The translations under genes were made by a program, and so were the position numbers. Positions 12,425 through 64,000 of a stretch of DNA of 64,000 nt are shown piece by piece; within the stretch, counting starts at the first letter, position 1; every line of letters begins with the position of its first letter. The notes under the pieces were generated by a model, which saw only the letters and a list, made by a program, of their open reading frames with translations, searched no databases and was not told the origin of the DNA. The DNA comes from Sediminivirga luteola (GTDB taxonomy: Bacteria; Actinomycetota; Actinomycetes; Actinomycetales; Brevibacteriaceae). The stretch covers positions 62,001-126,000 of the forward strand of contig NZ_BMFY01000005.1 in assembly GCF_014639315.1 (NCBI RefSeq), given 5' to 3'.

Positions 12425-12635
12425 GACGCGCTTTCCTGGATCGCGGCCGGGTGGTATCGAGGCACCCGGATACGGCAGCGGGCGGCTTGAAGCCGCCCGG
12501 ACGGGCGCCACGCCAAGTGTAGCGACCGGGGAGCCGTACCGCAGCTTCCCGGCGTCCCGGTGCCGGGAAACCGCGAAAACCGTGGCCGCGGGAACGAAGT
12601 CGCGACGGGAAGGGATGGGAACGGGAACAGCCCCG

Positions 12636-12641
12636 TAGACT
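12636..12641 (+). promoter_or_regulatory. -10 hexamer of leaderless cyclophilin transcript
   Basis: TAGACT, then exactly 7 nt to the ATG at 12649, with no Shine-Dalgarno sequence in between. This is the geometry of actinobacterial leaderless promoters, where transcription starts at the A of ATG. Confidence 0.6.
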
Positions 12642-12648
12642 TGCGGAC

Positions 12649-13329
12649 ATGACGCGAGCCACTCTTCCCGTGCTGTCCGCCGCGCTCCTCCTGGCCCTGA
12701 CCGGGTGCGCCGGCGGCGGCGATGAGACCCCCGAACCCGCAGCCTCGGCGCCAGCGCAGCAGGACGCCGCTCAGGAACCCGGCGGCTGCGGCTACGAGGA
12801 GGCGCCCGGTGGCGTCCGCGAGGTGGAGATGCCTCCGGAAGAGCCTGAGGTCGCCGGCGCCGTGGACGCGGTCATCGCCACCGACCGCGGAGAGATCGGC
12901 CTGACGCTGGACGCCGATGGCGCGCCCTGCACCGTCGGCTCCTTCGCCCATCTGGCCGGCAGCGGCTATTTCGACGACACCGAGTGCCACCGCCTCACCA
13001 CCGAGGGCATTTTCGTCCTGCAGTGCGGCGACCCCTCCGCCACCGGAACCGGCGGGCCGGGCTACCGCTTCGCGGACGAGCTCACCGGCCAGGAGATCTA
13101 CGACGCAGGCACTCTCGCCATGGCGAACGCCGGCCCGGACACGAACGGCTCCCAGTTCTTCCTTGTCTACGAGGACGCGCCCCTGCCGCCGGACTACACG
13201 GTGTTCGGGCAGATCGACGAGGCCGGGCTCCAGGTGCTCCGCACCATCGCCGAAGCCGGCACCGAGGACGGCGGCGCCGACGGCCGTCCCAGCGGCGGCG
13301 TCGTGATCGAGGGCGTCTCGATCGGCTGA
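12649..13329 (+). CDS. Cyclophilin-type peptidyl-prolyl isomerase lipoprotein
   Basis: A 226-residue lipoprotein, signal ending in the lipobox LTG-C (Cys20). After an acidic linker, a compact cyclophilin domain starts near residue 70 (VIATDRGEIGLTLDADGAP). It shows VGSFAHLAGSGYFDDTECHRL, GGPGYRFADE, TLAMANAGPDTNGSQFFL and YTVFGQI. The active-site Arg of the usual FHRV segment appears as CHRL, the GSQFF segment is intact, and the tryptophan that binds cyclosporin in human CypA is not evident. It probably catalyses proline isomerisation of exported proteins outside the membrane. Translation is likely leaderless from the TAGACT box 7 nt upstream. Confidence 0.9.
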   Translation: MTRATLPVLSAALLLALTGCAGGGDETPEPAASAPAQQDAAQEPGGCGYEEAPGGVREVEMPPEEPEVAGAVDAVIATDRGEIGLTLDADGAPCTVGSFAHLAGSGYFDDTECHRLTTEGIFVLQCGDPSATGTGGPGYRFADELTGQEIYDAGTLAMANAGPDTNGSQFFLVYEDAPLPPDYTVFGQIDEAGLQVLRTIAEAGTEDGGADGRPSGGVVIEGVSIG

Positions 13330-47876: not shown

Positions 47877-48253
47877 CGTTCGTGGTCCGCAGTGTTGGGG
47901 TCTACACACTCATGAGTAGCAAGACGCCTGCCGTTACCTGATGGGGTGAGATCGCCGTGGAATGATCCGGTCGTGGGAAAACGGAGGCGTTGTCGCTGTG
48001 ATTGCATCATCCGGACCGGCGCCTATCGGCCCGCTTTGACGATAACGTCTTCCGGGCCATCTTACGGCAGAAAGACATATACCTCCGCTTTATAGCCGCG
48101 GGCCGCCCGTGAGGACAATACCGTTGATTTGTCCTGTCCGGCGCGGTGTTCCTGACTGAGTACTGGGGAAATGCCGCGCGGGGCACGTGACGGGCCGCCG
48201 GGGTCGTCGCTGTGAACTGACGCCTGGCCGCGTCCCCACGGGGCTCCACGCCG

Positions 48254-48259
48254 TAGGAT
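48254..48259 (+). promoter_or_regulatory. -10 hexamer upstream of the coiled-coil protein gene
   Basis: TAGGAT, about 24 nt before the ATG at 48283, with GGAGGAGA in between as ribosome site. No convincing -35 was found. The rest of the gap 47877-48253 shows no repeat or gene. Confidence 0.4.
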
Positions 48260-48282
48260 TGGAAGCCATACGGAGGAGAACC

Positions 48283-49740
48283 ATGTGGACGTCCAAGCCC
48301 GACGGGCACGGCAAGTGGCGCGCATTGCACAAGCGGTACGTGGGTGCCGCGCGCCCGCGGTACCGCATCCTGGTCAACGACTCCGTCACCGAAGAGGTGC
48401 GCCGCCGCTGGGCAGCGCGCGGTGTCACCAATATCGCGATGCTGGGTCCGGGGCTCCCACCGCGGTCCGCCCCCGGCCTGCTGCGCCGTAACCTCCTCGG
48501 CAGCAAGGCCCTCTTCCTGGGCACCGGCGCCGTGGCGACCAGCGCCACCGTGAGCACCGGCGGCATCGCCTGGCTGGCCGGTGCGCTCACCTTCGTCGAA
48601 CCGACTACCGGGCTGCTGTGGACCGGAGGCGTCGCCGCCGTGACCGGTGCGGGTACCGCCTGGACCGGCGTGCGGTACTCCCGCGACCCGCGACGGCTGC
48701 GCCGCAACGAACGCGCCGCGGCCCGGGACGCCGTCTGGATCACCCCCGAGGCGCTCCGCGTTCCCGGCCCCAGGGGCGGGATGAAGGAGACCGACGAGCA
48801 ACGGCTCTTCCACCTGCTGTGCGCCCTCGCCCAGCGGATCGTCGCCACGCGTGCCTGGACGCACGAGTCCCTGCAGGGGCACATGTCCAAGCTCGACCTG
48901 GACCACTTGGTCTCCGGCATCGGCGCGCGCCTCCTGGAACTGACACAGCTCCGGCGCGAGATGGAGCGCATCAGGTCACCGCACTCGGAGCGGCAGCTCC
49001 GCGCTGTCGAGCGCCGTCTGCAGGAGGCTTTCGACTCGGCCGCTGCGAGGGTGGAGGGCCTGGAGGGATATCTTCAGCGGCTGCTCGCGCTCGATGAGCT
49101 GCTGCTGAAGCTGGACCATCTCGAACGCTCGCGTGAGCTCGGGGCGCGGGTACTCGACGTACTGGCGAAGACGGCCGACGACGAGGACGCGGACTGGCGA
49201 CTGCAAGACCTCAACCTCGAGGCCGAATCCCACGCCGAGGTGATCCAGCGGCTGCTTGAGGAACTCGAGGAGTCCGCCGACGAACTCAGCTTCCCGGACC
49301 CGCAGCCGTCCCGGCTGCCGCGGACCTCGCGCGGTGACGGGACGCACGGCTCCAATCGGCCGGGTCCTGCAGCAAGCGACATGCAGCCTGGCGCATCGAC
49401 GGAACATCCGGTGCCCGCGGATGATCGGACGGCCGGCGCTGCTGGAGGCGCCGACGCCGCCGGAGACGCGGACGCCAGCCGAGACGCCGATGCTGCCACA
49501 GGCGCGGCGGCCGCAGACGTGGGCCCGGCTACGGATTCCGTTGCGCGGGCAGCGCAAGCCGCCAGCAAAGACCGCGCCATCAGGGAGGACGCCGATGAGG
49601 GTGCTCCGCCGTCCACCGGCCCCGCCGCGGAGGCAGGGGTCGCTGAGCAGGACCCGCTGGGCACCGCCGCCGATGTGCTGAAAGCGCAGAGCGACGCCAT
49701 TCTGGACGAGCTGAACCGTCACCGCCGTCCAAAGCGCTGA
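48283..49740 (+). CDS. Membrane-associated coiled-coil protein of unknown function
   Basis: A 485-residue protein I do not recognise. The N-terminus is basic (SKPDGHGKWRALHKRYVGAARPRYR). Residues ~75-130 contain two or three weakly hydrophobic Ala/Gly/Thr-rich segments (LGTGAVATSATVSTGGIAWLAG, GLLWTGGVAAVTGAGTAWTG) that could form a hairpin membrane anchor. Residues ~205-350 are helical with coiled-coil heptads (LLELTQLRREMERIR, LQRLLALDELLLKLDHLERS, RLLEELEESADEL). The tail (~355-485) is a disordered Ala/Asp-rich region ending in a basic helix (LDELNRHRRPKR). GGAGGAGA precedes the ATG at 48283. It may organise envelope or nucleoid, which is not shown by sequence. Confidence 0.7.
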   Translation: MWTSKPDGHGKWRALHKRYVGAARPRYRILVNDSVTEEVRRRWAARGVTNIAMLGPGLPPRSAPGLLRRNLLGSKALFLGTGAVATSATVSTGGIAWLAGALTFVEPTTGLLWTGGVAAVTGAGTAWTGVRYSRDPRRLRRNERAAARDAVWITPEALRVPGPRGGMKETDEQRLFHLLCALAQRIVATRAWTHESLQGHMSKLDLDHLVSGIGARLLELTQLRREMERIRSPHSERQLRAVERRLQEAFDSAAARVEGLEGYLQRLLALDELLLKLDHLERSRELGARVLDVLAKTADDEDADWRLQDLNLEAESHAEVIQRLLEELEESADELSFPDPQPSRLPRTSRGDGTHGSNRPGPAASDMQPGASTEHPVPADDRTAGAAGGADAAGDADASRDADAATGAAAADVGPATDSVARAAQAASKDRAIREDADEGAPPSTGPAAEAGVAEQDPLGTAADVLKAQSDAILDELNRHRRPKR

Positions 49741-50066
49741 GTTCGTACCTTAAGGAACAGTGACAGTTGACGCGGAAAGTATCCACGGTTTGTTTTGCGT
49801 CATCGAACGGTTAACGTCGCCCGGCGAGCCTTCGGGAGAGTCGACTGGTCGGGTTCGCGTCTCTCACCAGCAGTGTTGTCTGGTTCCGTGCGTGTCGTGC
49901 GAATGGCCTGCCCCTGGCGAAGAAGTTGTCACCGCGACCGTTGCGGACGATAGCGAATTGGAAACGCCTGTCCCCAAACTGGACGATCTCTGAGAGCCTG
50001 AGAACGGTGCGCGTTCCGCACCGGGACGATGCACGCACAAGGTGGCAACACGACGGGGGTCGTAGG
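49741..50066. other. Upstream region of the giant surface-protein gene
   Basis: These 326 bp contain no supportable gene. Part of it (~49765-49830) is AT-richer than the surroundings. A possible -35 TTGACG at 49767 has no good -10 partner. The ATG at 50067 has a run of G residues (GGGGG, about 8 nt upstream) as likely ribosome site. An ORF at 49760-49993 lies here but lacks recognisable content. With Lsr2 encoded 2.5 kb away, this AT-rich segment would be a natural silencing target. Confidence 0.4.
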
Positions 50067-53000
50067 ATGCGGCACAGCAACTGGGCACGAGGACGACGAG
50101 GAAACCTGAGGCGCTGGGGAATACTCGGCACACTGTTCGTCCTCGTCTTCGGCACGATGCAGTTCCTTCCCGTGCTCAACGACGAACCCGCCCAGGCGTC
50201 CACCGTCGACGGCACCGTGAGCAACACCCAGATCCGCGCCTCCGCGGCGACCGGCCTGTGCTGGACGGTGCCGAACACCGATATCCAGGCGCTCATCACG
50301 CTCCAGCCCTGCAACCCGGACAATCCCCTGCAGCGCTGGGTCGTGACCGAGGACAACCGCATCTTCCTCAACGGCTACCAGACCGGCACCGTGCGCTGCG
50401 TGGACAACTACGGCAACCGCAGCGCGGACCAGCAGCTGCGGCTGACGGCCACCTGCCGGACCCAGGACCCCAACGCCATCTGGGACTACTGGCGCAACAA
50501 CGCCTCCGGCCGTTCCGCCGGCGGCTTCTACAACCCCAACGCCAACCTCTGCGCCAATATCTCGACCACCGGAGGCGTCATCCGCGCCGGCGACCGGATC
50601 GTGAACTGGGGCTGCTCCGCGGGCGCGACCGGAATCAACGACTACCAGTCGTTCTCCATCGGCGCCGCTGACATGAGCGTCAGCTCCAGCGCCTCCGTCG
50701 CAGGCGGCGCGGCCAGCCAGAACGTCACCGCCCAGCCGGGACAATCCGTCAGCGTGACGTACACGGTCAACGCCGCCGGCCCCCAGTCCGCCTACTACAA
50801 CCGCTTCGAGGTGCGGGCCAACACCACCTCCGGAAGCGGTACGTTCGCGCTCAGCGCTACCGCCACGCGCAGCGGCACCGCCGCGCAGGCCTACCAGAAC
50901 GCCACCCTCTCCGGAACCACCCTGACCTTCCCGACCAACGGCAATGCGGGCGACAACACCATCTGGCGGCCGGGCAACACCGGCACCGTCCAGGTGAGCG
51001 GCACGGTCCCGGCGAACGCGCAACCGGGCACGGTCTACCAGATCTGCGGCACCCAGACCAGCCAGCTCACCTTCGATCCGGCCACGGCCAACAACCAGGC
51101 GTGTACCACCGTGACGGTCGCGGCGTTCCAGACGGATCTGGCCATGACCACGTCCGGCTCGGCGGAGCTCACGCGCCTGGTGAACTCGGGCCAGCAGTTC
51201 AGCCTGCCCTACATTCTCACCAACAACGGCCCGAGCGCCGCCGGGTCTCCGCGAGTGTCCTTCTCGGTTCCCTCCGGAGTGACCGTCAGCAGCATCACCG
51301 GCCCGAATGGCTGGACCTGTGACACGAGCGGCCGGACATGCACGGGACCGTCCAGTTTCGACAGCGGCGCGACGGCAGAGTTCCGGCTGGTAGGTACAGT
51401 TCCGGCCAATCAGACCGCCGGCTCATCCGTCGGCGCGATCACCGCGACGGCTTCCGTCACAGGCCAGTACGCCGACCCTACTCCGGGCAACAACACCGCG
51501 ACCAATAACCTCCAGATCCGCAGCGAGGTCACCGTCAGCGTGGACAAGGCCCGGCCGGTCGGCGGGGACGTCAACCCCGGGGACCAGGTCACGTTCACGG
51601 TCACCGTGACCAATGACGGGCAGAACCGCGTCCAGGGCGCCACCTTCACCGACGACGTGCCGACATCGCTCACCGACGTCACCTGGTCCTGCGCCAGCAC
51701 AGGCGCCGCCACCTGCGGCGGCTCGGAAGGCACCGGCAACAACATCAGCCAGACGATCTCGCTCTCGCCAGGCGCCACGATCACCTACACCATCACCGGC
51801 ACGGTCGCGGACTCGGCCGCTGGTACGACTATCACCAATACAGCCACCGTCACAATGCCCTCGGGCACCACGAACGCGGGTACGGCCTCGGACTCCGAGT
51901 CCGTCAACGTGCGTGCGTTGTCCGATCTGGCGATCAGCGCCGAGCCGGTGGACCTCGCTCCGGGCGAGTCCGGCACGCTGAACGTCGTGGTCGCCAACAA
52001 CGGCCCGGCCGCGATCACCCAGAACGCGACTGTCGTGCTGACTCCGCCTGAGGGCGTCACCTTCGGTGAGGGTCCCGGCGCCTGTGAGCCCGGAAGCGGC
52101 ACCAGCATCGTCTGCACCATCTCCACGCTTGCCAACGGATCCAGCACGACGTTCCAGATTCAGGCGACGGCCGCCCCCGACGCGGCGCCGAACACAACGC
52201 TCACCGGCACCGGTGTGGTGAACTACAGCCTGGACACCGCCCCGGCGAACAACACCACCGATCTGGTCTTCGAGATCGGGGATGTCGCCAGCAACTTCGC
52301 CGTCTCATCGGTGAGCACCACCCCGAACGTCGTGCCCGGCCAGACGGGTACGATCACGGCCACGGTCGTCAATCACGGCCCGTCCGCCTCGACTGCCGCT
52401 ACTAGCGTCACGGTCCTGGTCACCCCGGCGCAGAACGCCGTCCTGACCGACGCGGACATGCCCGAGGGCTGCACCCTTGAGTCCGAGACCGAGATCATCT
52501 GCGAGGTCCCCGCCGGCGTCGCTGTAGGAGAGGAACTCACCTACGAGTTCACCTACCAGGTCCCGGCCTCGGCGTCTGAGAACGCCACCTACGGCGGCGG
52601 TACCGTGACGGTGATCAACGAAGACGACCCGATCGCCTCCGATGACACTCAGAACTGGTCCCTGACCACCGGCGCGCGCCAGGCGGACATGGCGATCAGC
52701 AAGACGCCCTCCAGCGATCCCGTCGTGCCGGGCACCACCTTCGAGTACACCCTCGAGGTCACCAACGCCGGTCCCTCCTACGCCACCGGCCCGGTCACCG
52801 TCACCGATGCTCTCCCCGCGACGCTGACCTACGTCTCCTATACGCATTCCGGAGCCGGGGACAAGACCTGTAGCGCGGACGAGCAGTTGGTCACCTGCTC
52901 CATCGGCGGTGACTTCGCCGTCGATCAGGTCTCGCAGATCGTGCTGACCGTGCGGCTCGATCCCGCCTACACCGGTGACGGCACGGACATCCAGAACTCC

Positions 53001-56000
53001 GCCTCCGTGGCCTCCACCTCGACCGATCCGGACGAGTCCAACAACAGCACGACCGCCGAGCCCATCGTCACGGGTGACTCCGAGGCCAATCTGGCGCTCA
53101 CGAAGACTGTCACCTCGGAGCAGGCGATCCCGCCGGGAGGTACCTTCTCCTATGAGCTGGTCGTCACCAACAACGGCCCGTCCGCCGCGCAGAACGTCGT
53201 GGTGAGCGATCCGCTTCCGGACGAGCTGAGTTTCGTCTCCTCCGGCACCGACTGCGTCGGCACGGAAGGCGACTACGGGGGCACTGTCACCTGCCCCACC
53301 ATCGGCTCCCTGGCGCCGAACGCCAGCCAGGTCTTCCAGATCACGGTCCGGCTGGCCCCCGAGTACGCGGGCGATGGCATGGACGTCGTGAACACCGCAA
53401 ACGCGGTCGCCGACAACGCCGAGGCGATCAACTTCTCCAATCCGGCACCGTTGCCGGAGGTGCTGCCGGCCAGCGCCGATGTCGCGGTGGAGAAGTACCT
53501 GGCCACCACGGGCAATGTGGTTCCCGGCCAGGAACTCACCTACCACATCAACGTCACCAACGAAGGCCCCTCCACCGCGACGGACATCGTCGTCGAGGAC
53601 GAGTTGCCTCCGGGTCTGACCTTCGTCTCCGGCACCGGCTGCTCCGCCGATGAGTCCGGCGCGGTCACCTGCGACACCATCACCAGCCTGGCCCCGGATG
53701 GGACGGTGTCGTACACGATCGTCGCCCAGATCGACCCCGGCTACGAGGGAGACGGCGAGAACCTGGTCAACGAGGTCACCGTCACGCCGGCCACCCCGGA
53801 TCCGAACGAGGACAACAACACCGCGCAAGCGGCCGCTCCGACGGTGAGCGACGCCGAGGCGGATCTGGCCGTCTACAAGGACGAGCCGCCGATCGCCGAC
53901 GGCGTGGCGCCCGGTGAGGAGTTCACCTACGAGGTGACGGTCGTCAACTACGGCCCCTCCAATGCCACTGAAGTCGAGATCACCGACATGCTGCCCGCCG
54001 AGGTCTCCTTCGTTTCGGCCGGCACGGACCCGGAATGCACTCTCGACGAGGATGCCGAGTTCGGCGGTGACGTCATCTGTACCCTGCCCGAACTCGCGGT
54101 GGGAGCGAACCACACTTTCACCATCCAGGTCCAGCTAGACCCGGCATACGGCAGCCCGGAGCAGCCGGCCGATGGCTATGACATCGTCAACCGCGCCTGG
54201 GTGACTGCGGACCAGATCGACCCGAACACCTGGGGCGAGGACGAGGATCCGCGCACGGTGGACCCGGCGACGACCAACAGCGTCGCCGTCTTCGAGGGCA
54301 TCCCGAACCTGCACGAGGGCCAGGCCGACGTCGAACTCGTCAAGACGGTCGTGGAAGCCGACGCCCGTCCCGGCGGCATCGTGCACTACCGGCTGACCAT
54401 GATGAACCACGGTCCCTCCGTGGCTCCCGGTCCGCAGGTCACGGACACCCTGGAAGGGGATATCAGCTTCTACTCCTACCCGGAGGGCTGTGTCCTCGAT
54501 GAGGACGACTCCCAGGTGCTCGTCTGCGGTCCGGCAGCCATCGGCACCTCCTCGCTTCCGCCTAACGAGCCCGAGCCCCGCACTCTGGACATCTACGCAC
54601 AGATCGGCCCCGGGTACACCGGCGACGGCTCCGATATCTTCAACGGCGCCACCGTCACCTCCGCCTACCCCAACGGCTGGAACGAGGACGACGAGGACAG
54701 CGCAACCGACCGCATCTCCCTGACCGACCAGGGCGTGGCCGTCGGCGAGGCCGAGGCCGATCTGACCATCGAGAAGCGCCTGACCACGACCTCGGACGTG
54801 GCGCCCGGTCAGATGCTCGACTACGAGGTCACCGTCAGCAACACCGGTCCTTCCACGGCGGCGGACTTCACCATCACCGACGCCCTGCCGGCCGGCCTCT
54901 CCCTGGTCTGGGGCGGCGGCTGCAGCGCCACAGGCGGAACCATCACCTGCGAGCACACCGATCCGCTCGCGCCGAACGAGTCCGTGACCTACTACTTCCG
55001 CGTGCAGATCGACCCGAGCTACACCGGCTCCGCCGCGGATCTGGTGAACACCGCCTCCGTCGACTCCACCACCACCGATCCGGACGGGAGCAACAACCAG
55101 TCCTCGGCCGCTGCGCCGAACCTGGGCGACCCGCAGGTAGGCCTCTCGCTGAACAAGATGCTGGCCAACCCCGGACAGGACGTCGTGCCCGGTGAGCAGT
55201 TCAGTTACATCTTGAGCCTGGTGAACAGCGGCCCCTCCACGGCGACGAATGTCACCATCACCGATCTGCTGCCCCCGCAGCTGACCTTCGTGCCGGACGC
55301 CGGCGGCGTGTGCTCCGCGTCCGAGGGCAATGCGCAGCTGGTCGAATGTGATCTTGGCAGTGTCCCACCGGACTCTCGTCCCGTGGTCGTCACGGTCGTG
55401 CTCGACCCCGAGTACACCGGCGACGGCGGCAACATCATCAACACCGCCGCGGTCTTCTCCGAGCAGACCGGTGAGGAGCCGGCGGACACCGCGGAGGCCC
55501 CGCCGGTCCCGGCCGCCGAGCCCAGTGCCGATCTGAGCATCGACAAGTTCAGCAGTTCCTCGCAGGTCCGCCCCGGCGATACCTTCGAGTACACCTTCAC
55601 GGTGGAGAACGCGGGCCCGTCCACCGCCCAGAGCGTCGTCATCAGCGATCCGCTTCCGGATGCAGTGACCTTCGTGGGCTCCGAGGACGGTTGCGCGCCG
55701 GCCGACGGCGGTGCCATCACCTGTGCCGTCGGCAGCGTCGCACCCGGACAGCCGGCCAGCTACACCATCACGGTGGAGCTGAACGACGACTACCTGCCCT
55801 CCGACGGCGATATCGTGAACGAGGCCACGGTCTCCTCCGCCACCGCGGATCCGGACGGGGACAACAACGTCGACGACTCGGTCATCACCAGCGGTGACCC
55901 CGAAGCGGCCCTGGAACTGACCAAGGTGGCGAACGTGGACGGCACGGTCGGGCCCGGTGAGACCTTCAGCTACACGTTGACCGTCACGAACCACGGCCCC

Positions 56001-59000
56001 TCGGTGGCCCGCGACGTGCAGGTCTTCGACCAGCTGCCGGCCGTGCTGGCGTTCCATTCCTCCGAGAGCTGCTCCGGCGACCCGGGCTACTACGGCGGCC
56101 AGGTCACCTGTGACGTTGCCGAGACGCTGGCAGTGGGCGCGAATGTCGAGCACACCATCGAGGTCCGCCTCAGCCCGTCCTACCCGGGTGACGGCTCGGA
56201 CATTCAGAACAGCGCCAGCGTCACCTCCTCCACCGCGATGCCCGAGGGATCCACCCCCAACGCGGAGGTCACCCTGCCCCCGGGCGCGGTCTCCGAAGCC
56301 GTCGCGGACCTGGAGCTGAGCAAGACAGCTCCGGAAGCACCCGTCACCGCCGGTGAGAACGGCACGTTCACGCTGACCGTGGAGAACCACGGCCCGGCGG
56401 ATGCCACCGAGGTGGTCATCACGGACACCCTGCCGGAGGGCCTGGCGCTCTACGGTTCGGACGGTGCCGACTGCACGCAGTCCGGCCAGGAGGTCACCTG
56501 CCCGATCGGCACAGTGCCTGAGGGCGGGACCGCCCAGGTCGTGCTGGACGTCGCAGTGGCATCCTCCGTGCCGCATGGCACCACCCTGACCAATGAGGCG
56601 ACGGTTTCCTCGGCCGCCGAGGACGACGACGAGAGCAACAACGTCGCTTCCGCCTCGCTGACCGTTCAGGCCATCGCCTCGGTATCCGTGACCGACGCCC
56701 CGCCTGCCTCCCTGAACGCCGGCGAGGAGGCGACCTACACCGTCACCGTGCGCAACGAGGGCCCCTCGGATGCGCAGGACGTGACGATCACCTACGAGCT
56801 CGACCCGAGCCTGACGTTCGTGCCGCATCCCGACTGGGACTGCACCGCCGAAGGCCAGACGGTCACCTGCACCATCGGCTCCGTGCCGGCAGGCCAGGAG
56901 ATCCAGGTGCCGATCACGGTCGCCGTCAGCCCGGACACCCCGGCCGGCCACCAGCCGGTGAACAGCGGCTCGGTGACGACCAGCACCGAGAACACCAGCG
57001 ACGACACCTCGACGACCTCCACGGGTCCCGCGGTGGAGGTGTCCGCGGACATCGTCACCACCAAGACAGCCGTCGGTGAGGACCGCGTGATCCCGGGTGA
57101 GGAGTTCGACTACCTCATCACGGTCGCCAACGAGGGCCCGGCCGTCGCCACCGGCGTGGTGCTGACGGACGACCTGCCCAGCGTCCTCCGGTTCGTCTCC
57201 GCCTCCTCCGAGGCAGTCGACTGCACAGCTGACGGCGAGGCCTTCGGCGACGATGTCACCTGCTCCCCGGTGGAAACCCTCGGAGCCGGCGAGAGCTTCG
57301 AGGTCGTCCTGACCGTGCAGCTCGACCCGGGCTACGCGGGCAGCGGGGAAGACGTGCTGAACCAGGCCCGGGCCGACTCCGAGACCCCGGACCCGCTGCA
57401 GCGCAACAACGCCGCCAGCGCGAGCCTCCCCGGCGGCGGTGCGGCGGATCCGGAAGCGGACCTCTCGCTGAACAAGAGCCTGGCCAGCCAGGATCCCGTG
57501 ACGCCGGGCGAAACCTTCGTCTACATCCTGGAGGTCGCCAATGAGGGCCCCTCTGCCGCGGTGAACCCGCGGGTGATCGACACCCTCCCGAGCGGGCTGA
57601 CCTTCGTCGGAGGCAACCAGGAGGCGTGGCCTTGCGACGCGCAGGACCAGATCGTCACCTGCGCCTACTCGGGCGGAGCCTGGGCACCGGGCAGCAGCAT
57701 CACCCTGGAGCTGGAAGTCCGCCTGGACTCCTCCTACACCGGTGACGGTTCCGATCTGCCGAACTCCGCGACCGTCGAGTCCGATACGACCGACCCGAAC
57801 CCGGGCAACACCAGCTCCGAGGTGGAGGACGGCGCGCCTGCCGGCGAGCCGCTGGCGGACCTGCTGCTGACCAAGACGATGACGGCGGCGGGCGATGATC
57901 CGGGCCAGACCCAGATCGTCCCGGGCGGCTTCGTCGAGATGGACCTGACGGTGGAGAACCGCGGCCCCTCGGACGCCGCCGACGTCGCGGTGACCGATCC
58001 GCTCCCGTCCCAGCTCGCCTTCGTCTCCTCCGAGCAGTGCACCGGCACGCCCGGGGAGTACGGCGCCACCGTCACCTGCCCGACCGCCGAGACCCTCGGC
58101 GTCGGCGAGCGCCTGCACTACAGCGTGATCCTGCAGCTGGATCCGGCTTACGTCGGCACCGGCGAAAACGTGGTCAACTCGGTCACGCTGGAGTCCAGCA
58201 CGACTGACCCCGAGCCCGGGACCGGCACGAGCGACGCCGACCTGGGCGGGATCGTCGACGAGGCCTCGGCCGATGTGTGGATCGACAAGTCGACTACCGC
58301 TCAGGACGTCGCTCCCGGCGACAGCTTCGACTACGAGATCACCGTGGCGAACGAGGGTCCCTCCACCGCTGCGAACACCCAGGTGGTCGACACGCTGCCG
58401 GCCCAGCTGAGCTTCATCTCCGCCGAAGGCGCCGAATGCGACGCCGCCGGGAGCGAGGTCATCTGCGACCTGGGTGCGCTCGCGCCGGGCGCCAGCGAGG
58501 TCATCACGCTGACCGTCGAGCTGGACAGCGATTACGAGGGCAGCGGCGCGAACGTCGTCAACTCCGTGACGGTGTCCTCCACGACGCCCGATCCGGACGA
58601 GGGGAACAACACCAACACCGCTTCGGTGCCGGCCGGACAGGCGCACGCCGATGTCTCCATCGTCAAGGAGGCCGTCGGCGATGCCGTGGCCCCGGGGCAG
58701 ACCTTCGACTACACCCTGACGGTCGCCAACGCCGGCCCCTCGACCGCGCGGAACGTCTTGGTGACGGACACCCTGCCCTCGCAGCTGCGGTTCGTCGGGT
58801 CCGAGGACTGCACCGGCCCGGCAGAGGGCTTCGGCGGGACCGTGAACTGCGGCCCGGTCCGCTCACTGCCCGCCGGTGGCGACGATCTGAGCTATGTGAT
58901 CACGGTGCAGCTGGCACCCGGCTACCAGGGAGACGGCGCGAACGTGGTCAACACCGCCGTGGTGGAGACCGATACGAACGACCTGAACTCGGCGAACAAC

Positions 59001-62000
59001 CGCGATACCGAGGGGCTTCCCGGCCCCGACGGCGCACCGGCCGCTCCGCAGTCCCAGCTGACCACGGAGACCGAGGTCCGTACACCGGGCGGCGATCCCA
59101 TCGCCCCGGGTGAGGAGTTCGAGGTCGTCCACCGCGTCGGCAACGACGGTCCCTCGGTGGCCCGGGACGTCACGGTCGTCTACGAGGTGCCGGACAATGT
59201 GGAGCTCGTCTCAGTGCCGGAGAACTGCCGCGTGGACGGGCGGACGGTCACCTGCGTGATCGACTCGATCGCGCCGGGCGGCGATGTGGAACTGCCCATC
59301 ACCGTGCGGCTCGACCCCGGGTACACCAGCGACGGCACGGACATCTCCCACACCGCGACGGTGGACTCGCCCTCCTCCGAGCCGGTGAGCTCCGAGCCGG
59401 TCGATATGGGCGGGCACGTGACCGACCCGCGTTCCGACCTCAGCGTCGGGGTGGGCATCCAGACGCCCGGTGGTGAGCCCATCGCCCCGGGTCAGGACGC
59501 CGATGTGATCATCACCGTCGGCAACGGCGGCCCCTCCACGGCGCAGCCGGTCACGGTGACCTACCCGGTACCGGACCACCTGACGGTCGATCCCGACCGC
59601 CTGGACCCGCGCTGCGAGCTGTCCGAGGACGGCCGGACCGTCACCTGCACCATCGACGAGCTGCCGCCCGAGGGCACCGTGGAGATCACGGTGCCGGTCA
59701 CCCTGGATCCGGAGTACACCGGTGACGGCACGAACATCGTGAACCAGGTGACCGTGGACGCGCCCTCCTCTGATCCGGTCACCTCCGACCCGGTCGACAT
59801 GAGCGACGCGGTCGGTGAGGGCTCGGCCGATCTGGCGCTGACCAAGGCGCCGCTGACGAGCGATCCGGTGGCACCGGGGGAGACCTTCTCGTACCAGTTG
59901 ACCGTGGTCAACAACGGTCCGTCCGTCGCCGTCGGCGTGGTCGTCACCGACCAGCTGCCCGACAGCCTGGCGCTGGTCTCGTCGGAGACCTGCACCGGCA
60001 CGCCGGACCAGTACGGTGCCACCGTCACCTGTGAGGCCGGAACCCTGGCGGTCGAGGCGGACGCCGTCTTCGTGATCGAAGTCCGGATCGACCCGAGCTA
60101 CAGCGGTGACGGGGCGGACATCACCAACACCGCGACCGTGGCCGCGGACACCGCGGACCCGAACCTCGACAACAACGAGGCCAGCGCGCAGGTGCCCGGC
60201 GGCGCGACCTCCGATCCGCGCTCGGACCTGACCGTCGGCACCGAGATCCGCACCCCCGGCGATGAGCCGGTGGCGCCGGGCGAGCGCTTCGACGTGATCA
60301 TCACGGTCGGCAACGACGGGCCGTCCACCGCTCGCGATGTGGTCGTCACCTACCCGGTGCCCGAGGGCATCGCGGTGGATCCGGCGCTGCTGGACCCGCG
60401 TTGCGAGCTGTCCGACGACGGCCGGACCGTCACCTGCACCATTGACGAGATCCCGCCCGGCGGCAGTGTCGAGATCGACGTCCCGGTGATCCTGAACCCG
60501 GATTACACCGGTGACGGCACGGACATCGTGCACCAGCCCACCGCGGACTCGCCGACCTCCGATCCGGTGACCGCCGAGCCGGTGGACACCGGCGGGCACA
60601 TCGGTGAAGGCCAGGCGGACCTGCGGCTGGACAAGTCGGTGGTACCGGGCAGCCTCGGCTCAGAGGGCTCGGTCGCTCCCGGCGACACCTTCGAGTATCT
60701 CCTCACGGTGGCCAACGACGGGCCGTCCGACGCCAGCGGCGTGACCATCACCGACACGCTGCCGGCCGAGCTGAGTCACTCGTCCCACGATGGTGACTGC
60801 AGCGTCGACGGCCAGACCGTCACCTGCCAGGTGGAGAGCATCCCGGCCGGTGAATCCGCTGAGGTCACGCTCACGGTGCAGCTGTCCGGCGACTACTCCG
60901 GCGACGGCTCCGATGTGGAGAACATCGCCCAGGTCTCCGCTGAGACCGCCGACCCCGATCTGGGCAACAACCAGAACTCAGCGGGCGTCCCAGCCGGTCA
61001 GCCGCATGCCGATGTCTCGATCGTCAAGGAGGCCCTCGGCGATCCGATCTCCGCCGGCGAGACCTTCGGCTACCAGCTGACCGTCGCCAACGCCGGTCCG
61101 TCCACGGCCACCGGCGTGACCGTCACGGACACTCTGCCGGCTCAGCTGAGCCTCGTCTCCGCGGACGAGACCTGCACCGCCGACGGTCAGGAGATCACCT
61201 GCCAGGTGGGCACGCTGGCCTCCGGCGCGGAGACCGTCCTCGGACTCGAGGTCCAGCTGGACGCGGACTACCGCGGCGGCGGCACCGATGTGGAGAACCT
61301 GGCCGTGGTGACCTCGGTGACCGAGGACCTCACCACGATCAACAACCGCGACACCGCGGGCCTGCCCGGCCCGGACGGGACCGTGGAACCGCCGCGCTCC
61401 GAGCTCACCATCGGCACGGAGATCGTGACGCCCGACGGGGAGCCGGTGGCACCCGGTGAGGAGGCCGGCGTCATCATCACCGTCGGCAACGACGGGCCCT
61501 CCACCGCGCGGGACGTCGTCGTCACCTACCCGGTGCCGGAGAACCTCCAGGTGACCGAGGTGCCGGAGAACTGCACCCTCTCGCGTGACGGTCGTACGGT
61601 CACCTGCACGGTGGACGAGCTGCCGCCGGGCGAGGCGGTCGAGTTCCCGATCACCGTGATCGTCGATCCCGGTTACGCCGGTGACGGCACGGATATCGTC
61701 AACGAGCCGAGCGCGGACTCCCCGTCCTCCGAGCCGGTCACGGCCGATCCGGTGGACATGGGCGACCATGTGACCGATCCGCGCAGCGAGCTGACGGTGG
61801 AGACGGAGAACCGCACTCCGGACGGAGCGCCGATCGCTCCGGGGGAGGACTTCGACTACGTCGTGATCGTCGAGAACGACGGCCCCTCCACGGCTCGTGA
61901 CGTCACGATCACCTACCCGGTGCCCGACGGTGTGACCGTCGACCCGGAGACGCTGGACCCCAGGTGCGAGCTTTCCGAGGACGGCGGTACCGTGACCTGC

Positions 62001-64000
62001 GTGATCGAGGAGATCCCGCCGGGCGAGCGGGTCGAGGTCCCGATCACCGTGATCGTCGACCCGGAGTACACCGGTGATGGCACGGACATCGTGAACCAGG
62101 TCGAGGTGGACTCCCCGTCCTCCGAGCCCGTCATCTCCGAGCCGACCGACATCTCCGATGTCGTCGGAGACGGCTCCGCGGACCTGGCGTTGTACAAGAC
62201 GCCGGTGACGAGCGAACCGGTCACCCCGGGCGAGACCTTCCAGTACGAGCTCCGGGTGGTCAACAATGGCCCGTCGCTGGCGGTGGGGATCGTCGTGACC
62301 GACCAGCTGCCGGTGACGCTGTCTTTCGTCTCCTCCGAGGACTGCACCGGTCCCGGGGAGTACGGCGCGAGCGTGACCTGTGAGCTGGGCTCCCTCTCCG
62401 TGGAGGAGGAGATCAGCGTCGTCATCGAGGTGCGGATCGATCCGTCCTACACCGGCGACGGTTCGGACATCGTCAACACCGCCACGGTCACGGCGGAGAC
62501 GGAGGATCCGGATCTGTCCAACAACGAGGCACGGGCGGTCGTCCCCTCGGGCAGCACCGGCGACGCCGAGGCCGATGTCTCCCTGGAGAAGGCATTCGTC
62601 ACGGACGGACAGGTGGCCCCGGGCCAGACCGTCAGCGTGGTCTTCACCGTGTCGAACGACGGGCCGTCCACCGCGCGCGGCATCGTGGTGACGGACGATC
62701 TGCCGGCCGAACTGGCCTACATGTCCAGTGAGGACTGCACCGGCACTACCGCTCTGCTGGGCGGTACGATCACCTGCGCCCCGATCCCGTCGCTGGAGCC
62801 CGGCCAGAGCGCCGAGCTCACCGCCGAGGTGCTGCTCGACCCGGCGTACCGCGGCGACGGCTCGGATGTGGTGAACAACGCGGTAGCCGAGCCGGCCACG
62901 GCGGATCCCGATACGGACAACAACTTCGCCTCGGCCTCCCTGGAGGACGCGGTCGGCGAGTCGGACGCGGATCTGGAGATCGTCAAGACCGGGCCCGATG
63001 TCCTGGTGGCCAGTGGTCAGGTCGTCTACGAGATCGACGTGGTCAACCACGGACCGTCCCGCGCGACGGGCGTGGTGGTCACCGACGAGCTCGACGAGCG
63101 GCTGACCCTGATCAGCCAGGAGCCCGAGCTCTGCGATGCGGACGGCCAGTCCTTGACCTGTGACTTCCGTGAGATCGCGCCGGGTGGCACCCGGGGCGTG
63201 ACCCTCACAGTGGAGGTCTCGGACGAGGCCGGTCACGGCGACGAGATCGCCAACACCGCCGTGGTCGCAGCGGAGACGCCCGACAGCGATCTCAGCAACA
63301 ACGAGAGCACGACCGTCGGGACCGTGGTCGACCCGGATGCGACGGAGGTGGCGGATCTCGCCCTGACCAAGGAGTTCGCTGATGAGACGGCGGGCCCGAT
63401 CGCACCGGGGGAGACCTTCGGGTACATCATCACCGTGAGCAATCTCGGTCCTGGCGATGCGTCCGAGGTCACCATGGTGGACACCCTGCCGGCCGAGCTG
63501 AGCTACGTCTCGGCCGAGGGCGACGGCGTCCAGTGCGCTCCGCAGAACGGCACGGTCAGCTGTGACCTGGCCGAGTCCCTGCCAGCCGGCGAGGAACTCG
63601 AGCTGGTGCTGACGGTCCGCCTGGCTCCGGACTACGCCGGTGGCGAGGACGAGGCCATCGTGAACGAGGCCACCGTCAGCGCGGCCACGCCGGATCCGGA
63701 TCTGGCCAACAACACCGACACCGCCGAGGGCGTCCCCGGCGGCGTGGGCGAGCGGATCTCGGACCTGGCCATCACGGCTCAGGACGCCGAGGGGCCGGTC
63801 CCGCCCGGCTCGGAGACGACCATGACCTACGAGGTCGTCAACCTCGGGCCGAGCGCGGTGCCGGAGGGCGAGGCGACGGTGGAGATCACCATGCCGGAGG
63901 ATGTGCTGGCCCAGACCGGCGGACAGCCGGAAGGCTGCTCCGTCGCCGAGGACCGGCTCACGGTCACCTGCGTGGTCGACGAGCTGCTCTGGCCGGAGGA
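50067..64000 (+). CDS. Giant secreted DUF11-repeat surface protein with ricin-type lectin-like head, 3' end outside window
   Basis: One frame is open from the ATG at 50067 to the window end, over 4,640 codons, with no stop. The signal peptide has a long basic lead, a hydrophobic core (GILGTLFVLVFGTMQFLPVL) and a probable cut near PAQAS. Residues ~50-205 look like a ricin-type beta-trefoil with three units, each ending in a Cys/Trp motif (ITLQPCNPDNPLQRW, LTATCRTQDPNAIWDYW, LCANISTTGG to WGCSAG). From ~355 about 33 DUF11 (TIGR01451-type) beta repeats follow, mean ~131 aa. Each has the core VxNxGPS, and nearly all have a CxnC pair and a segment of the kind DPxYxGDGxDIxN before DPDxxNN. The array is very acidic. 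No anchor is seen because the C-terminus is missing. It probably projects from the cell as an adhesin or matrix protein. Confidence 0.9.
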   Translation, partial: MRHSNWARGRRGNLRRWGILGTLFVLVFGTMQFLPVLNDEPAQASTVDGTVSNTQIRASAATGLCWTVPNTDIQALITLQPCNPDNPLQRWVVTEDNRIFLNGYQTGTVRCVDNYGNRSADQQLRLTATCRTQDPNAIWDYWRNNASGRSAGGFYNPNANLCANISTTGGVIRAGDRIVNWGCSAGATGINDYQSFSIGAADMSVSSSASVAGGAASQNVTAQPGQSVSVTYTVNAAGPQSAYYNRFEVRANTTSGSGTFALSATATRSGTAAQAYQNATLSGTTLTFPTNGNAGDNTIWRPGNTGTVQVSGTVPANAQPGTVYQICGTQTSQLTFDPATANNQACTTVTVAAFQTDLAMTTSGSAELTRLVNSGQQFSLPYILTNNGPSAAGSPRVSFSVPSGVTVSSITGPNGWTCDTSGRTCTGPSSFDSGATAEFRLVGTVPANQTAGSSVGAITATASVTGQYADPTPGNNTATNNLQIRSEVTVSVDKARPVGGDVNPGDQVTFTVTVTNDGQNRVQGATFTDDVPTSLTDVTWSCASTGAATCGGSEGTGNNISQTISLSPGATITYTITGTVADSAAGTTITNTATVTMPSGTTNAGTASDSESVNVRALSDLAISAEPVDLAPGESGTLNVVVANNGPAAITQNATVVLTPPEGVTFGEGPGACEPGSGTSIVCTISTLANGSSTTFQIQATAAPDAAPNTTLTGTGVVNYSLDTAPANNTTDLVFEIGDVASNFAVSSVSTTPNVVPGQTGTITATVVNHGPSASTAATSVTVLVTPAQNAVLTDADMPEGCTLESETEIICEVPAGVAVGEELTYEFTYQVPASASENATYGGGTVTVINEDDPIASDDTQNWSLTTGARQADMAISKTPSSDPVVPGTTFEYTLEVTNAGPSYATGPVTVTDALPATLTYVSYTHSGAGDKTCSADEQLVTCSIGGDFAVDQVSQIVLTVRLDPAYTGDGTDIQNSASVASTSTDPDESNNSTTAEPIVTGDSEANLALTKTVTSEQAIPPGGTFSYELVVTNNGPSAAQNVVVSDPLPDELSFVSSGTDCVGTEGDYGGTVTCPTIGSLAPNASQVFQITVRLAPEYAGDGMDVVNTANAVADNAEAINFSNPAPLPEVLPASADVAVEKYLATTGNVVPGQELTYHINVTNEGPSTATDIVVEDELPPGLTFVSGTGCSADESGAVTCDTITSLAPDGTVSYTIVAQIDPGYEGDGENLVNEVTVTPATPDPNEDNNTAQAAAPTVSDAEADLAVYKDEPPIADGVAPGEEFTYEVTVVNYGPSNATEVEITDMLPAEVSFVSAGTDPECTLDEDAEFGGDVICTLPELAVGANHTFTIQVQLDPAYGSPEQPADGYDIVNRAWVTADQIDPNTWGEDEDPRTVDPATTNSVAVFEGIPNLHEGQADVELVKTVVEADARPGGIVHYRLTMMNHGPSVAPGPQVTDTLEGDISFYSYPEGCVLDEDDSQVLVCGPAAIGTSSLPPNEPEPRTLDIYAQIGPGYTGDGSDIFNGATVTSAYPNGWNEDDEDSATDRISLTDQGVAVGEAEADLTIEKRLTTTSDVAPGQMLDYEVTVSNTGPSTAADFTITDALPAGLSLVWGGGCSATGGTITCEHTDPLAPNESVTYYFRVQIDPSYTGSAADLVNTASVDSTTTDPDGSNNQSSAAAPNLGDPQVGLSLNKMLANPGQDVVPGEQFSYILSLVNSGPSTATNVTITDLLPPQLTFVPDAGGVCSASEGNAQLVECDLGSVPPDSRPVVVTVVLDPEYTGDGGNIINTAAVFSEQTGEEPADTAEAPPVPAAEPSADLSIDKFSSSSQVRPGDTFEYTFTVENAGPSTAQSVVISDPLPDAVTFVGSEDGCAPADGGAITCAVGSVAPGQPASYTITVELNDDYLPSDGDIVNEATVSSATADPDGDNNVDDSVITSGDPEAALELTKVANVDGTVGPGETFSYTLTVTNHGPSVARDVQVFDQLPAVLAFHSSESCSGDPGYYGGQVTCDVAETLAVGANVEHTIEVRLSPSYPGDGSDIQNSASVTSSTAMPEGSTPNAEVTLPPGAVSEAVADLELSKTAPEAPVTAGENGTFTLTVENHGPADATEVVITDTLPEGLALYGSDGADCTQSGQEVTCPIGTVPEGGTAQVVLDVAVASSVPHGTTLTNEATVSSAAEDDDESNNVASASLTVQAIASVSVTDAPPASLNAGEEATYTVTVRNEGPSDAQDVTITYELDPSLTFVPHPDWDCTAEGQTVTCTIGSVPAGQEIQVPITVAVSPDTPAGHQPVNSGSVTTSTENTSDDTSTTSTGPAVEVSADIVTTKTAVGEDRVIPGEEFDYLITVANEGPAVATGVVLTDDLPSVLRFVSASSEAVDCTADGEAFGDDVTCSPVETLGAGESFEVVLTVQLDPGYAGSGEDVLNQARADSETPDPLQRNNAASASLPGGGAADPEADLSLNKSLASQDPVTPGETFVYILEVANEGPSAAVNPRVIDTLPSGLTFVGGNQEAWPCDAQDQIVTCAYSGGAWAPGSSITLELEVRLDSSYTGDGSDLPNSATVESDTTDPNPGNTSSEVEDGAPAGEPLADLLLTKTMTAAGDDPGQTQIVPGGFVEMDLTVENRGPSDAADVAVTDPLPSQLAFVSSEQCTGTPGEYGATVTCPTAETLGVGERLHYSVILQLDPAYVGTGENVVNSVTLESSTTDPEPGTGTSDADLGGIVDEASADVWIDKSTTAQDVAPGDSFDYEITVANEGPSTAANTQVVDTLPAQLSFISAEGAECDAAGSEVICDLGALAPGASEVITLTVELDSDYEGSGANVVNSVTVSSTTPDPDEGNNTNTASVPAGQAHADVSIVKEAVGDAVAPGQTFDYTLTVANAGPSTARNVLVTDTLPSQLRFVGSEDCTGPAEGFGGTVNCGPVRSLPAGGDDLSYVITVQLAPGYQGDGANVVNTAVVETDTNDLNSANNRDTEGLPGPDGAPAAPQSQLTTETEVRTPGGDPIAPGEEFEVVHRVGNDGPSVARDVTVVYEVPDNVELVSVPENCRVDGRTVTCVIDSIAPGGDVELPITVRLDPGYTSDGTDISHTATVDSPSSEPVSSEPVDMGGHVTDPRSDLSVGVGIQTPGGEPIAPGQDADVIITVGNGGPSTAQPVTVTYPVPDHLTVDPDRLDPRCELSEDGRTVTCTIDELPPEGTVEITVPVTLDPEYTGDGTNIVNQVTVDAPSSDPVTSDPVDMSDAVGEGSADLALTKAPLTSDPVAPGETFSYQLTVVNNGPSVAVGVVVTDQLPDSLALVSSETCTGTPDQYGATVTCEAGTLAVEADAVFVIEVRIDPSYSGDGADITNTATVAADTADPNLDNNEASAQVPGGATSDPRSDLTVGTEIRTPGDEPVAPGERFDVIITVGNDGPSTARDVVVTYPVPEGIAVDPALLDPRCELSDDGRTVTCTIDEIPPGGSVEIDVPVILNPDYTGDGTDIVHQPTADSPTSDPVTAEPVDTGGHIGEGQADLRLDKSVVPGSLGSEGSVAPGDTFEYLLTVANDGPSDASGVTITDTLPAELSHSSHDGDCSVDGQTVTCQVESIPAGESAEVTLTVQLSGDYSGDGSDVENIAQVSAETADPDLGNNQNSAGVPAGQPHADVSIVKEALGDPISAGETFGYQLTVANAGPSTATGVTVTDTLPAQLSLVSADETCTADGQEITCQVGTLASGAETVLGLEVQLDADYRGGGTDVENLAVVTSVTEDLTTINNRDTAGLPGPDGTVEPPRSELTIGTEIVTPDGEPVAPGEEAGVIITVGNDGPSTARDVVVTYPVPENLQVTEVPENCTLSRDGRTVTCTVDELPPGEAVEFPITVIVDPGYAGDGTDIVNEPSADSPSSEPVTADPVDMGDHVTDPRSELTVETENRTPDGAPIAPGEDFDYVVIVENDGPSTARDVTITYPVPDGVTVDPETLDPRCELSEDGGTVTCVIEEIPPGERVEVPITVIVDPEYTGDGTDIVNQVEVDSPSSEPVISEPTDISDVVGDGSADLALYKTPVTSEPVTPGETFQYELRVVNNGPSLAVGIVVTDQLPVTLSFVSSEDCTGPGEYGASVTCELGSLSVEEEISVVIEVRIDPSYTGDGSDIVNTATVTAETEDPDLSNNEARAVVPSGSTGDAEADVSLEKAFVTDGQVAPGQTVSVVFTVSNDGPSTARGIVVTDDLPAELAYMSSEDCTGTTALLGGTITCAPIPSLEPGQSAELTAEVLLDPAYRGDGSDVVNNAVAEPATADPDTDNNFASASLEDAVGESDADLEIVKTGPDVLVASGQVVYEIDVVNHGPSRATGVVVTDELDERLTLISQEPELCDADGQSLTCDFREIAPGGTRGVTLTVEVSDEAGHGDEIANTAVVAAETPDSDLSNNESTTVGTVVDPDATEVADLALTKEFADETAGPIAPGETFGYIITVSNLGPGDASEVTMVDTLPAELSYVSAEGDGVQCAPQNGTVSCDLAESLPAGEELELVLTVRLAPDYAGGEDEAIVNEATVSAATPDPDLANNTDTAEGVPGGVGERISDLAITAQDAEGPVPPGSETTMTYEVVNLGPSAVPEGEATVEITMPEDVLAQTGGQPEGCSVAEDRLTVTCVVDELLWPE
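58641..60203 (+). repeat. Higher-order DUF11 block, copy A (4 units)
   Basis: Four consecutive repeat units inside the giant gene, beginning HADVSIVKEAVGD, through GLPGPDGAP, SSEPVSSEPVDMG, LDPRCELSEDG and ADLALTKAPLTSDPV, to NNEASAQVPGG. The same order of variant-specific motifs returns 2.35-2.36 kb downstream in copy B, so the unit of duplication was larger than a single domain. Confidence 0.7.
61003..62553 (+). repeat. Higher-order DUF11 block, copy B (4 units)
   Basis: It begins HADVSIVKEALGD and continues with GLPGPDGTV, SSEPVTADPVDMG, LDPRCELSEDG and ADLALYKTPVTSEPV, to NNEARAVVPSG, matching copy A motif for motif. The first ~40 nt are almost identical to the start of copy A. Nucleotide-level similarity elsewhere is patchy, so the event is recent on the scale of the array but not brand new. 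Confidence 0.7.

What the first reader, a model, noticed from the sequence alone, without database searches (positions are those of the whole stretch)
50067..64000. A >4,640-codon lectin-headed DUF11 giant gene fills the last 14 kb
The reading frame runs from 50067 to the window end with no stop. It combines a signal peptide, a ricin-type beta-trefoil-like head and about 33 DUF11 repeats. DUF11 repeat proteins and ricin-type lectins are both known, but a lectin cap on a repeat array of this size is unusual. It suggests a very long glycan-binding surface filament. The length and architecture are read directly; lectin activity and surface display are inferred.
Basis: partly seen in the sequence, partly recalled or inferred. 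Interest (0 to 1): 0.8.

Follow-up and report, generated by a model that had tools for sequence, protein, structure and literature searches.

The report
Lectin-tipped giant cell-wall adhesin gene
This is a complete 4,825-residue bacterial surface-protein gene that looks like a long, chemically cross-linked fibre with a sugar-binding-type tip and a cell-wall anchor; fibres of this kind are known, but this tip and its small membrane partner gene are an unusual combination.

Summary
The frame from ATG 50067 has no stop in the window; in the parent contig it ends at window-equivalent 64544 (4,825 aa) with an LPRTG sortase signal. Head (residues ~45-204): a divergent ricin-type (R-type) trefoil-like domain by Pfam, by profile-profile match over 111 columns, by PDB profile hits and by three Cys pairs; single-sequence AlphaFold failed. 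Stalk: 33 DUF11 repeats, a domain renamed CLIPPER in 2025 and shown to form isopeptide cross-links (PMC12617251). 23 of 33 repeats carry the Lys-Asp-Asn triad, 10 lack Lys and Asp together; all 33 have two Cys; 23 of 25 lysines are triad lysines. Xylanimonas oleitrophica has an ortholog with the same head, about 34 repeats, LPVTG and, as here, an ATGA-overlapping gene for a small DUF11 membrane protein. Size is rare, not unique: other DUF11 frames reach 5,239 codons. Best reading: a sortase-anchored fibrillar adhesin, new in its tip and partner. Sugar binding is untested.

The parts
50067..64000 (+). Giant surface-protein gene, 4,825 aa; continues past the window to a stop at window-equivalent 64544, ending in a Thr/Pro-rich stretch, LPRTG, a hydrophobic segment and RRRRDTV. 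The small partner gene follows at window-equivalent 64541-65269
   Evidence: ortholog in X. oleitrophica
50067..50198 (+). Signal peptide (residues 1-44: basic start, hydrophobic core, probable cut after AQA)
   Evidence: read by eye from the sequence; no signal-peptide program was available
50199..50678 (+). R-type (ricin-B / CBM13-like) trefoil-like head, residues 45-204, Cys at 65/82, 111/130, 162/183
   Evidence: AlphaFold single-sequence model uninformative
50679..51128 (+). Connecting region (residues 205-354), conserved in X. oleitrophica, only a partial match to the repeats
51129..64000 (+). Stalk: 33 DUF11/CLIPPER repeats R01-R33 (R33 runs to window-equivalent 64166); 23 with Lys-Asp-Asn triad, all 33 with two Cys
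59049..62150 (+). Stretch R21-R28 holding five related repeats without Lys and Asp (R21, R22, R24, R27, R28; Tyr in the Asp position)

Best explanation
The gene encodes a sortase-anchored fibrillar adhesin. The signal peptide exports it; LPRTG is cut by one of the two sortases in the genome and joined to the cell wall; the Thr/Pro-rich stretch crosses the wall; 33 CLIPPER (DUF11) domains form a stalk, of the order of 0.13-0.15 micrometre if each adds about 4 nm (recalled figure, not computed); and an R-type trefoil-like head at the N-terminal tip binds a carbohydrate away from the cell. The stalk is locked twice: predicted Lys-Asn isopeptide bonds in 23 of 33 repeats and a Cys pair in every repeat. 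The ten repeats without Lys and Asp may be less stiff sections. The likeliest target is a plant or biofilm polysaccharide, because ricin-B/CBM13 domains bind polysaccharides in secreted actinobacterial enzymes (recalled). A small membrane protein with one DUF11 domain, whose start overlaps the giant's stop as ATGA, probably assists assembly or anchoring. Shown: architecture, triad residues, anchor motif, partner gene, ortholog. Inferred: cross-links, disulfides, anchoring, sugar binding, the partner's role.
For: Frame and LPRTG end; two sortase genes in the genome. Head: Pfam ricin-B in this protein and in the ortholog (E 9.8e-9); hhalign to 13 actinobacterial ricin-B domains P 1.3e-6, probability 90.6, over 111 columns reaching into all three subdomains, with the two control comparisons at P 0.45 and 0.17; PDB search with the two-head profile: 26 of 26 matches up to E 1 are R-type lectins (class judged from the molecule names), best E 3.5e-4; six Cys in three pairs, all six kept in the ortholog. 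Stalk: AlphaFold of R23 on a 26-repeat alignment pLDDT 97.6; Foldseek rank 2 is 9IFR, the CLIPPER crystal structure, E 8.4e-8; Lys-Asp spacing 34-36 in 18 of the 20 repeats the script could measure (40 and 41 in two) and Asp-Asn 56-68 in 19, against 33 and 58 in 9IFR (Lys715, Asp748, Asn806; PMC12617251). Lys and Asp occur together in 22 of 33 alignment rows plus R02, whose Lys the alignment shifts, and are jointly absent in 10; in 696 repeats of fetched loci, 585 have both, 69 neither, 42 only one. Ortholog and conserved partner.
Against: No experiment. The head model failed (pLDDT 38.5). With the window head alone the PDB search was weak: 13 matches up to E 1, best 0.0066, of which 5 (ubiquitin, three ydhR, one oxidoreductase) are not R-type. 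Strict QXW occurs in one of three subdomains (QRW; the others have NAIW and QSF), and the Cys-x-Asp common in bacterial ricin-B domains is present only in the second (CVD). Foldseek's first hit is an integrin and 194 chains pass E 0.001, so the fold match alone is not specific to CLIPPER. Asn is also present in the Asn column of 6 of the 10 repeats without Lys and Asp, so Asn follows the pair less closely. Fisher values treat related repeats as independent, which they are not. Neither sortase is tested on LPRTG. The head is known from two species only.
Confidence: 0.7

Rival explanations
1. The protein is a structural coat or cell-cell linker (biofilm or sheath) and the trefoil-like head is only a folded cap or binds another protein, not sugar.
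For: Only one strict QXW in three subdomains. DUF11 proteins stabilise cell aggregates in Methanothermobacter and occur in proposed S-layer parts (PMC12617251, section 7). Other giant DUF11 frames carry different caps: of 31 fetched frames with 8 or more repeats and a complete 5' end, 8 (the query frame L120 included) match the L120 cap and only this gene has the ricin-type head.
Against: Six Cys and the CVDN(Y/F)GN motif of the second subdomain are kept in both species at 51% head identity; the PDB profile hits are R-type lectins.
Confidence: 0.25
2. Assembly artefact: head, stalk or anchor were joined wrongly, or repeats were collapsed or multiplied.
For: The ortholog's own assembly does break inside an exact 688-bp duplication, so such genes are hard to assemble.
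Against: Longest exact repeat here is 26 bp; the same head, much of the same repeat order and a sorting signal occur in an independent genome; no stop in 4,825 codons.
Confidence: 0.03
3. A narrower form of the best explanation, not exclusive of it: the head is a plant-polysaccharide module (CBM13 use) that tethers the cell to hemicellulose or galactan during biomass breakdown, rather than an adhesin for other cells.
For: CBM13 and ricin-B domains share one fold (PMC11212257, passages); the ortholog lies in Xylanimonas, Promicromonosporaceae, a group with xylan degraders (recalled); a sugar-type ABC transporter lies downstream (best NCBIfam matches below their cut-offs), though not in the ortholog's locus.
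Against: No ligand data; the transporter neighbourhood is not conserved.
Confidence: 0.35

Closest known systems
CLIPPER (DUF11) fibrillar adhesin B9T28_05395 of Acinetobacter silvestris, PDB 9IFR (PMC12617251)
   Same: N-terminal adhesive part, tandem CLIPPER stalk, Lys-Asp-Asn triad with similar spacing, surface protein
   Different: Gram-negative, 2,129 aa, CshA-like head and OmpA-like anchor; here R-type trefoil-like head, 33 repeats, LPRTG, a Cys pair in every repeat
Xylanimonas oleitrophica PW21 ortholog (end of NZ_QKWH01000003.1 and start of NZ_QKWH01000007.1)
   Same: Same head (51% identity), about 34 repeats, 20 of the first 29 with their best match at the same position here, LPVTG, same overlapping small partner gene
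   Different: Exact 688-bp internal duplication; different downstream neighbours (pdxT-, yebC- and ruv-like frames, named from recall)
Giant DUF11 LPXTG proteins of other Actinomycetota (L166, 5,239 codons; L120 and L132 from Nocardioides, 3,801 and 3,770 codons)
   Same: Signal-like start, long DUF11 stalk, sorting signal, few lysines outside the triad
   Different: Another N-terminal cap, shared among these three and not ricin-like
Ricin-B / CBM13 domains (PF00652)
   Same: Pfam score above cut-off; three thirds each with a Cys pair
   Different: Only one strict QXW; carried on a wall-anchored stalk instead of a lectin chain or secreted enzyme

Membership tests
CLIPPER / DUF11 (PF01345) | Pfam match over the curated cut-off | tested here: met
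   1762.6 bits for the in-window protein, 32 stretches
CLIPPER / DUF11 (PF01345) | CnaA-like Ig beta-sandwich | tested here: met
   AlphaFold of R23 pLDDT 97.6; Foldseek rank 2 = 9IFR, E 8.4e-8, TM 0.59. One repeat modelled of 33
CLIPPER / DUF11 (PF01345) | Lys-Asp-Asn isopeptide triad | tested here: met
   23 of 33 repeats; 10 of 33 lack Lys and Asp. The source paper says some DUF11 domains lack it
CLIPPER / DUF11 (PF01345) | the covalent bond itself | not testable with these tools
   needs mass spectrometry or a crystal structure
Fibrillar adhesin | long stalk of tandem known stalk domains | tested here: met
   33 repeats
Fibrillar adhesin | surface anchor | tested here: met
   LPRTG, hydrophobic segment and basic tail at the C-terminus, read from the sequence; two sortases in the genome. 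Attachment itself not tested
Fibrillar adhesin | adhesive domain at the tip | tested here: inconclusive
   ricin-type head at the N-terminus; binding untested; no word beginning with ricin in the texts of PMC9210967, PMC12617251 and PMC8286594 (supplements not readable)
R-type lectin / ricin-B / CBM13 (PF00652) | profile match over the curated cut-off | tested here: met
   32.4 and 38.3 bits against 29; ortholog 35.9; the match covers profile positions 44/45-126, not the whole model
R-type lectin / ricin-B / CBM13 (PF00652) | three ~50-residue repeats each with two Cys | tested here: met
   Cys 65/82, 111/130, 162/183, all six invariant in the ortholog
R-type lectin / ricin-B / CBM13 (PF00652) | QXW motif in every repeat | tested here: not met
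   QRW in the first only; NAIW and QSF in the others. PMC11212257 reports that 58% of modules have a single QXW, so I call the head R-type-like and do not file it as a typical member
R-type lectin / ricin-B / CBM13 (PF00652) | beta-trefoil by structure | tested here: inconclusive
   single-sequence AlphaFold pLDDT 38.5
R-type lectin / ricin-B / CBM13 (PF00652) | sugar binding | not testable with these tools
   needs a binding assay

The most novel reading that the evidence does not exclude
A two-gene adhesion module: a giant, doubly locked (isopeptide plus disulfide) wall-anchored fibre tipped with an R-type lectin, whose lysines have been purged except those that form cross-links (23 of 25), with interspersed uncross-linked repeats as compliant sections, and a co-translated single-CLIPPER membrane protein that captures or registers the giant at the membrane before sortase anchoring.
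Probability: 0.3. Interest if true: 0.6.

Novelty: new variant of a known kind. Interest (0 to 1): 0.42.

Why it matters
It adds a carbohydrate-binding-type tip to the recently defined CLIPPER stalk class and gives a natural series for testing what isopeptide bonds do in a long stalk: in one protein, 23 repeats have the triad and 10 lack Lys and Asp together while keeping the Cys pair. The scarcity of other lysines suggests selection against stray cross-linking, which can be tested. The conserved overlapping partner gene points to an unstudied assembly factor.

Tried and rejected
Rejected: assembly artefact (ortholog). Rejected: 'size is unprecedented' (DUF11 at E<=1e-6 in 196 of 396 phylum genomes, with open frames of 5,239 and 4,743 codons; at most 11 candidates were scored per genome and not all matches were listed). 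Other long ricin-bearing frames of the phylum: I fetched six stretches from five genomes, and none of their frames over 550 aa has LPXTG in its last 60 residues; DUF11 was not tested there. Several end in NlpC/P60- or L,D-transpeptidase-like stretches (named from recall). The other ricin hits I know only by their printed frame lengths, 2,125 codons or less; for many genomes only ten candidates were scored there.

Led nowhere or weak: AlphaFold of the head alone. Scan of the genome collection with the head-end 439 aa found no relative, yet the X. oleitrophica ortholog is in that collection and was found with repeat profile A3; that negative is therefore weak. Head searches in sampled genomes: 1 of 59, 1 of 297, and with the two-head profile 3 of 396, the two others weak (2.1e-4, 8.4e-4) in 573- and 164-aa frames; the strong hit was always the window's own genome. 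X. oleitrophica was evidently not among the sampled genomes. Plasmid collection: one record, matching the DUF11 part only; phage collection: no match. Partner gene: 2 of 386 genomes, the window's own and a 33% match in G079, with no DUF11 repeat in the 20 kb fetched there. Promoter and terminator scan 49600-50200: nothing. A repeat profile of 32 rows against the PDB by sequence gave only an integrin (E 4.5e-4) and an unrelated chain, not 9IFR.

Corrections made on the way: a control protein (ATPase) was translated out of frame; the Lys/Arg test was redone and only that figure is used. In one search R02 was scored as lacking Lys because of an alignment shift; its Lys is at 494. The pattern search missed Asp in R16, R31, R32 and Asn in R18; the alignment columns hold them. 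Rows dropped: repeats with a gap in the Lys or Asp column; two of the 15 ricin-B domains (L070, identical to L044; L066, divergent).

Full report
Observation. The window is bases 62001-126000 of a 261,790-bp contig of a 3.86-Mb genome. The frame from ATG 50067 runs out of the window with 4,644 codons and stops at window-equivalent 64542-64544, for 4,825 aa and about 492 kDa. The C-terminus is a Thr/Pro-rich stretch, then LPRTG, a hydrophobic segment and RRRRDTV: a sortase sorting signal read directly from the sequence. The genome holds two sortase genes, one beside a pilin-like gene with LPATG. The longest exact repeat in the gene is 26 bp, so collapse by assembly is unlikely. Third-position GC is 0.898.

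Head. Pfam Ricin_B_lectin matches residues 53-139 with 32.4 bits (cut-off 29) and it is the only match of that family in the genome at E<=0.01. The ortholog's head matches too (35.9 bits). The two heads are 51% identical and share all six Cys, spaced as three pairs, which fits the description of ricin-B domains as three repeats of about 50 residues with two Cys each (PMC11212257, passages). A profile of the two heads aligned to 13 actinobacterial ricin-B domains over 111 columns reaching into all three thirds, P 1.3e-6, probability 90.6; the controls, repeats against ricin-B and head against repeats, gave P 0.45 and 0.17. Against the PDB the two-head profile has 26 matches up to E 1, all R-type lectins by their molecule names, best E 3.5e-4, mostly over the first third. 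Against this reading: the window head alone gave 13 PDB matches, best E 0.0066, of which 5 are not R-type; AlphaFold on the head alone reached only pLDDT 38.5; strict QXW occurs once.

Stalk. A repeat HMM finds 33 repeats, mean pairwise identity 34%, the closest pair 72%. DUF11 was renamed CLIPPER in 2025 after a crystal structure (9IFR) showed a Lys715-Asn806 isopeptide bond, presumably catalysed by Asp748, and K715A was less heat- and protease-resistant (PMC12617251; sections 6, 7 and 8 read). AlphaFold of repeat R23 on a 26-repeat alignment gave pLDDT 97.6; Foldseek placed 9IFR second (E 8.4e-8, TM 0.59) behind an integrin, with 194 chains at E<=0.001. In the repeat alignment 22 rows have Lys, Asp and Asn in the three columns, R02 is a 23rd with its Lys displaced by the alignment, and the remaining 10 (R01, R03, R04, R15, R21, R22, R24, R27, R28, R33) have neither Lys nor Asp; the Asp column is Tyr in six of them and the Asn column still Asn in six. 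With R02 counted against me the Fisher value for Lys and Asp is 1.2e-7, though related repeats are not independent. In 696 repeats of the fetched loci with both columns readable, this gene and the ortholog included, 585 have both, 69 neither and 42 only one; without these two genes 539, 49 and 39 of 627. All 33 repeats have exactly two Cys; the paper reports disulfides in 29.7% of CLIPPER domains.

Lysines. The whole protein has 25 lysines, 23 of them triad lysines. Outside the triads there are 2 Lys to 104 Arg, against 90 to 180 in six neighbouring genes (Fisher 4.7e-13; only one of the six is a secreted protein, so the comparison is rough). The ortholog's N-terminal piece has 22 lysines in 4,147 aa. 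Many, not all, other long arrays show the same: the non-triad Lys/Arg ratio is 0.16 or less in 25 of the 42 arrays listed, this gene and the ortholog included, but above 1 in six (L127, L131, L175, L176, L177, L179). So this is a trend shared with many GC-rich arrays, not unique here.

Ortholog and partner. Profile A3 over the genome collection gave 58 loci; the best, 72% identical to R23, is near the end of a contig of Xylanimonas oleitrophica PW21. That piece begins with a signal peptide and the same head; the C-terminal piece with LPVTG lies at the start of another contig, and the contig ends share exactly 77 bp. Counting 29 and 5 repeats gives about 34; 20 of the first 29 have their best match at the same position here, 17 of the first 20. 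The ortholog has an exact 688-bp (plus 107-bp) duplication at 2,343-bp spacing, six repeats; here R22/R28 and R23/R29 lie at the same six-repeat distance but have diverged to 64 and 70%. In both species the stop of the giant overlaps, as ATGA, the start of a small gene: 242 aa here (window-equivalent 64541-65269), 213 aa there, each with one DUF11 domain over cut-off and, by eye, a signal-like start and a C-terminal membrane segment. Among 386 order genomes only the window's genome and one 33% match hold it. The flanking genes differ: a sugar-type ABC transporter follows here (best family matches below cut-off), other genes there.

How unusual. DUF11 at E<=1e-6 occurs in 196 of 396 sampled phylum genomes, with frames to 5,239 codons among the matches listed. 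PF00652 occurs in 27 of 396, this one included, and among the matches scored in no other frame above 2,125 codons. Of 31 fetched frames with 8 or more repeats and a complete 5' end, one has the ricin-type head, this gene; the ortholog was not in that count because its frame runs off the start of the fetched stretch. Eight of the 31, the query included, share another cap. Paper searches for DUF11 with isopeptide, ricin, lectin, LPXTG, sortase and related words showed no title or abstract start describing such a protein; I saw listings only, capped for four of the five searches (for example 12 of 1,477), the library lacks most subscription journals, and supplements were not readable. PMC9210967 and PMC8286594 were seen in passages only.

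Reading. It works like, and in architecture is, a sortase-anchored fibrillar adhesin with a CLIPPER stalk; the tip is R-type-like. Cross-links, wall attachment, sugar binding and the partner's role are inferences.

Noticed in passing
parent genome contig C17:27032-31408 (L011:3033-7409, minus strand): A second DUF11/DUF7927 surface protein with LPFTG in a 1,459-aa frame, about 7 kb from a pilin-like LPATG gene and a sortase gene.
   Followed up: partly
L108:9572-10367 and 11915-12710: Exact 688-bp plus 107-bp duplication inside the X. oleitrophica ortholog, at which its assembly breaks.
   Followed up: yes
window 48187-49740: 517-aa ORF just upstream with no NCBIfam match and only a below-cut-off Pfam VasL match.
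   Followed up: partly
L166, L120, L132, L117, L122, L158, L178 (L159 weakly): DUF11 giants of several lineages share a different N-terminal cap (weak DUF3344 match in L158), suggesting exchangeable caps on a common stalk.
   Followed up: partly
G079:C2:138957-139430 (in L189): Distant relative (33%) of the small partner protein, with no DUF11 repeat found in the 20 kb fetched.
   Followed up: partly
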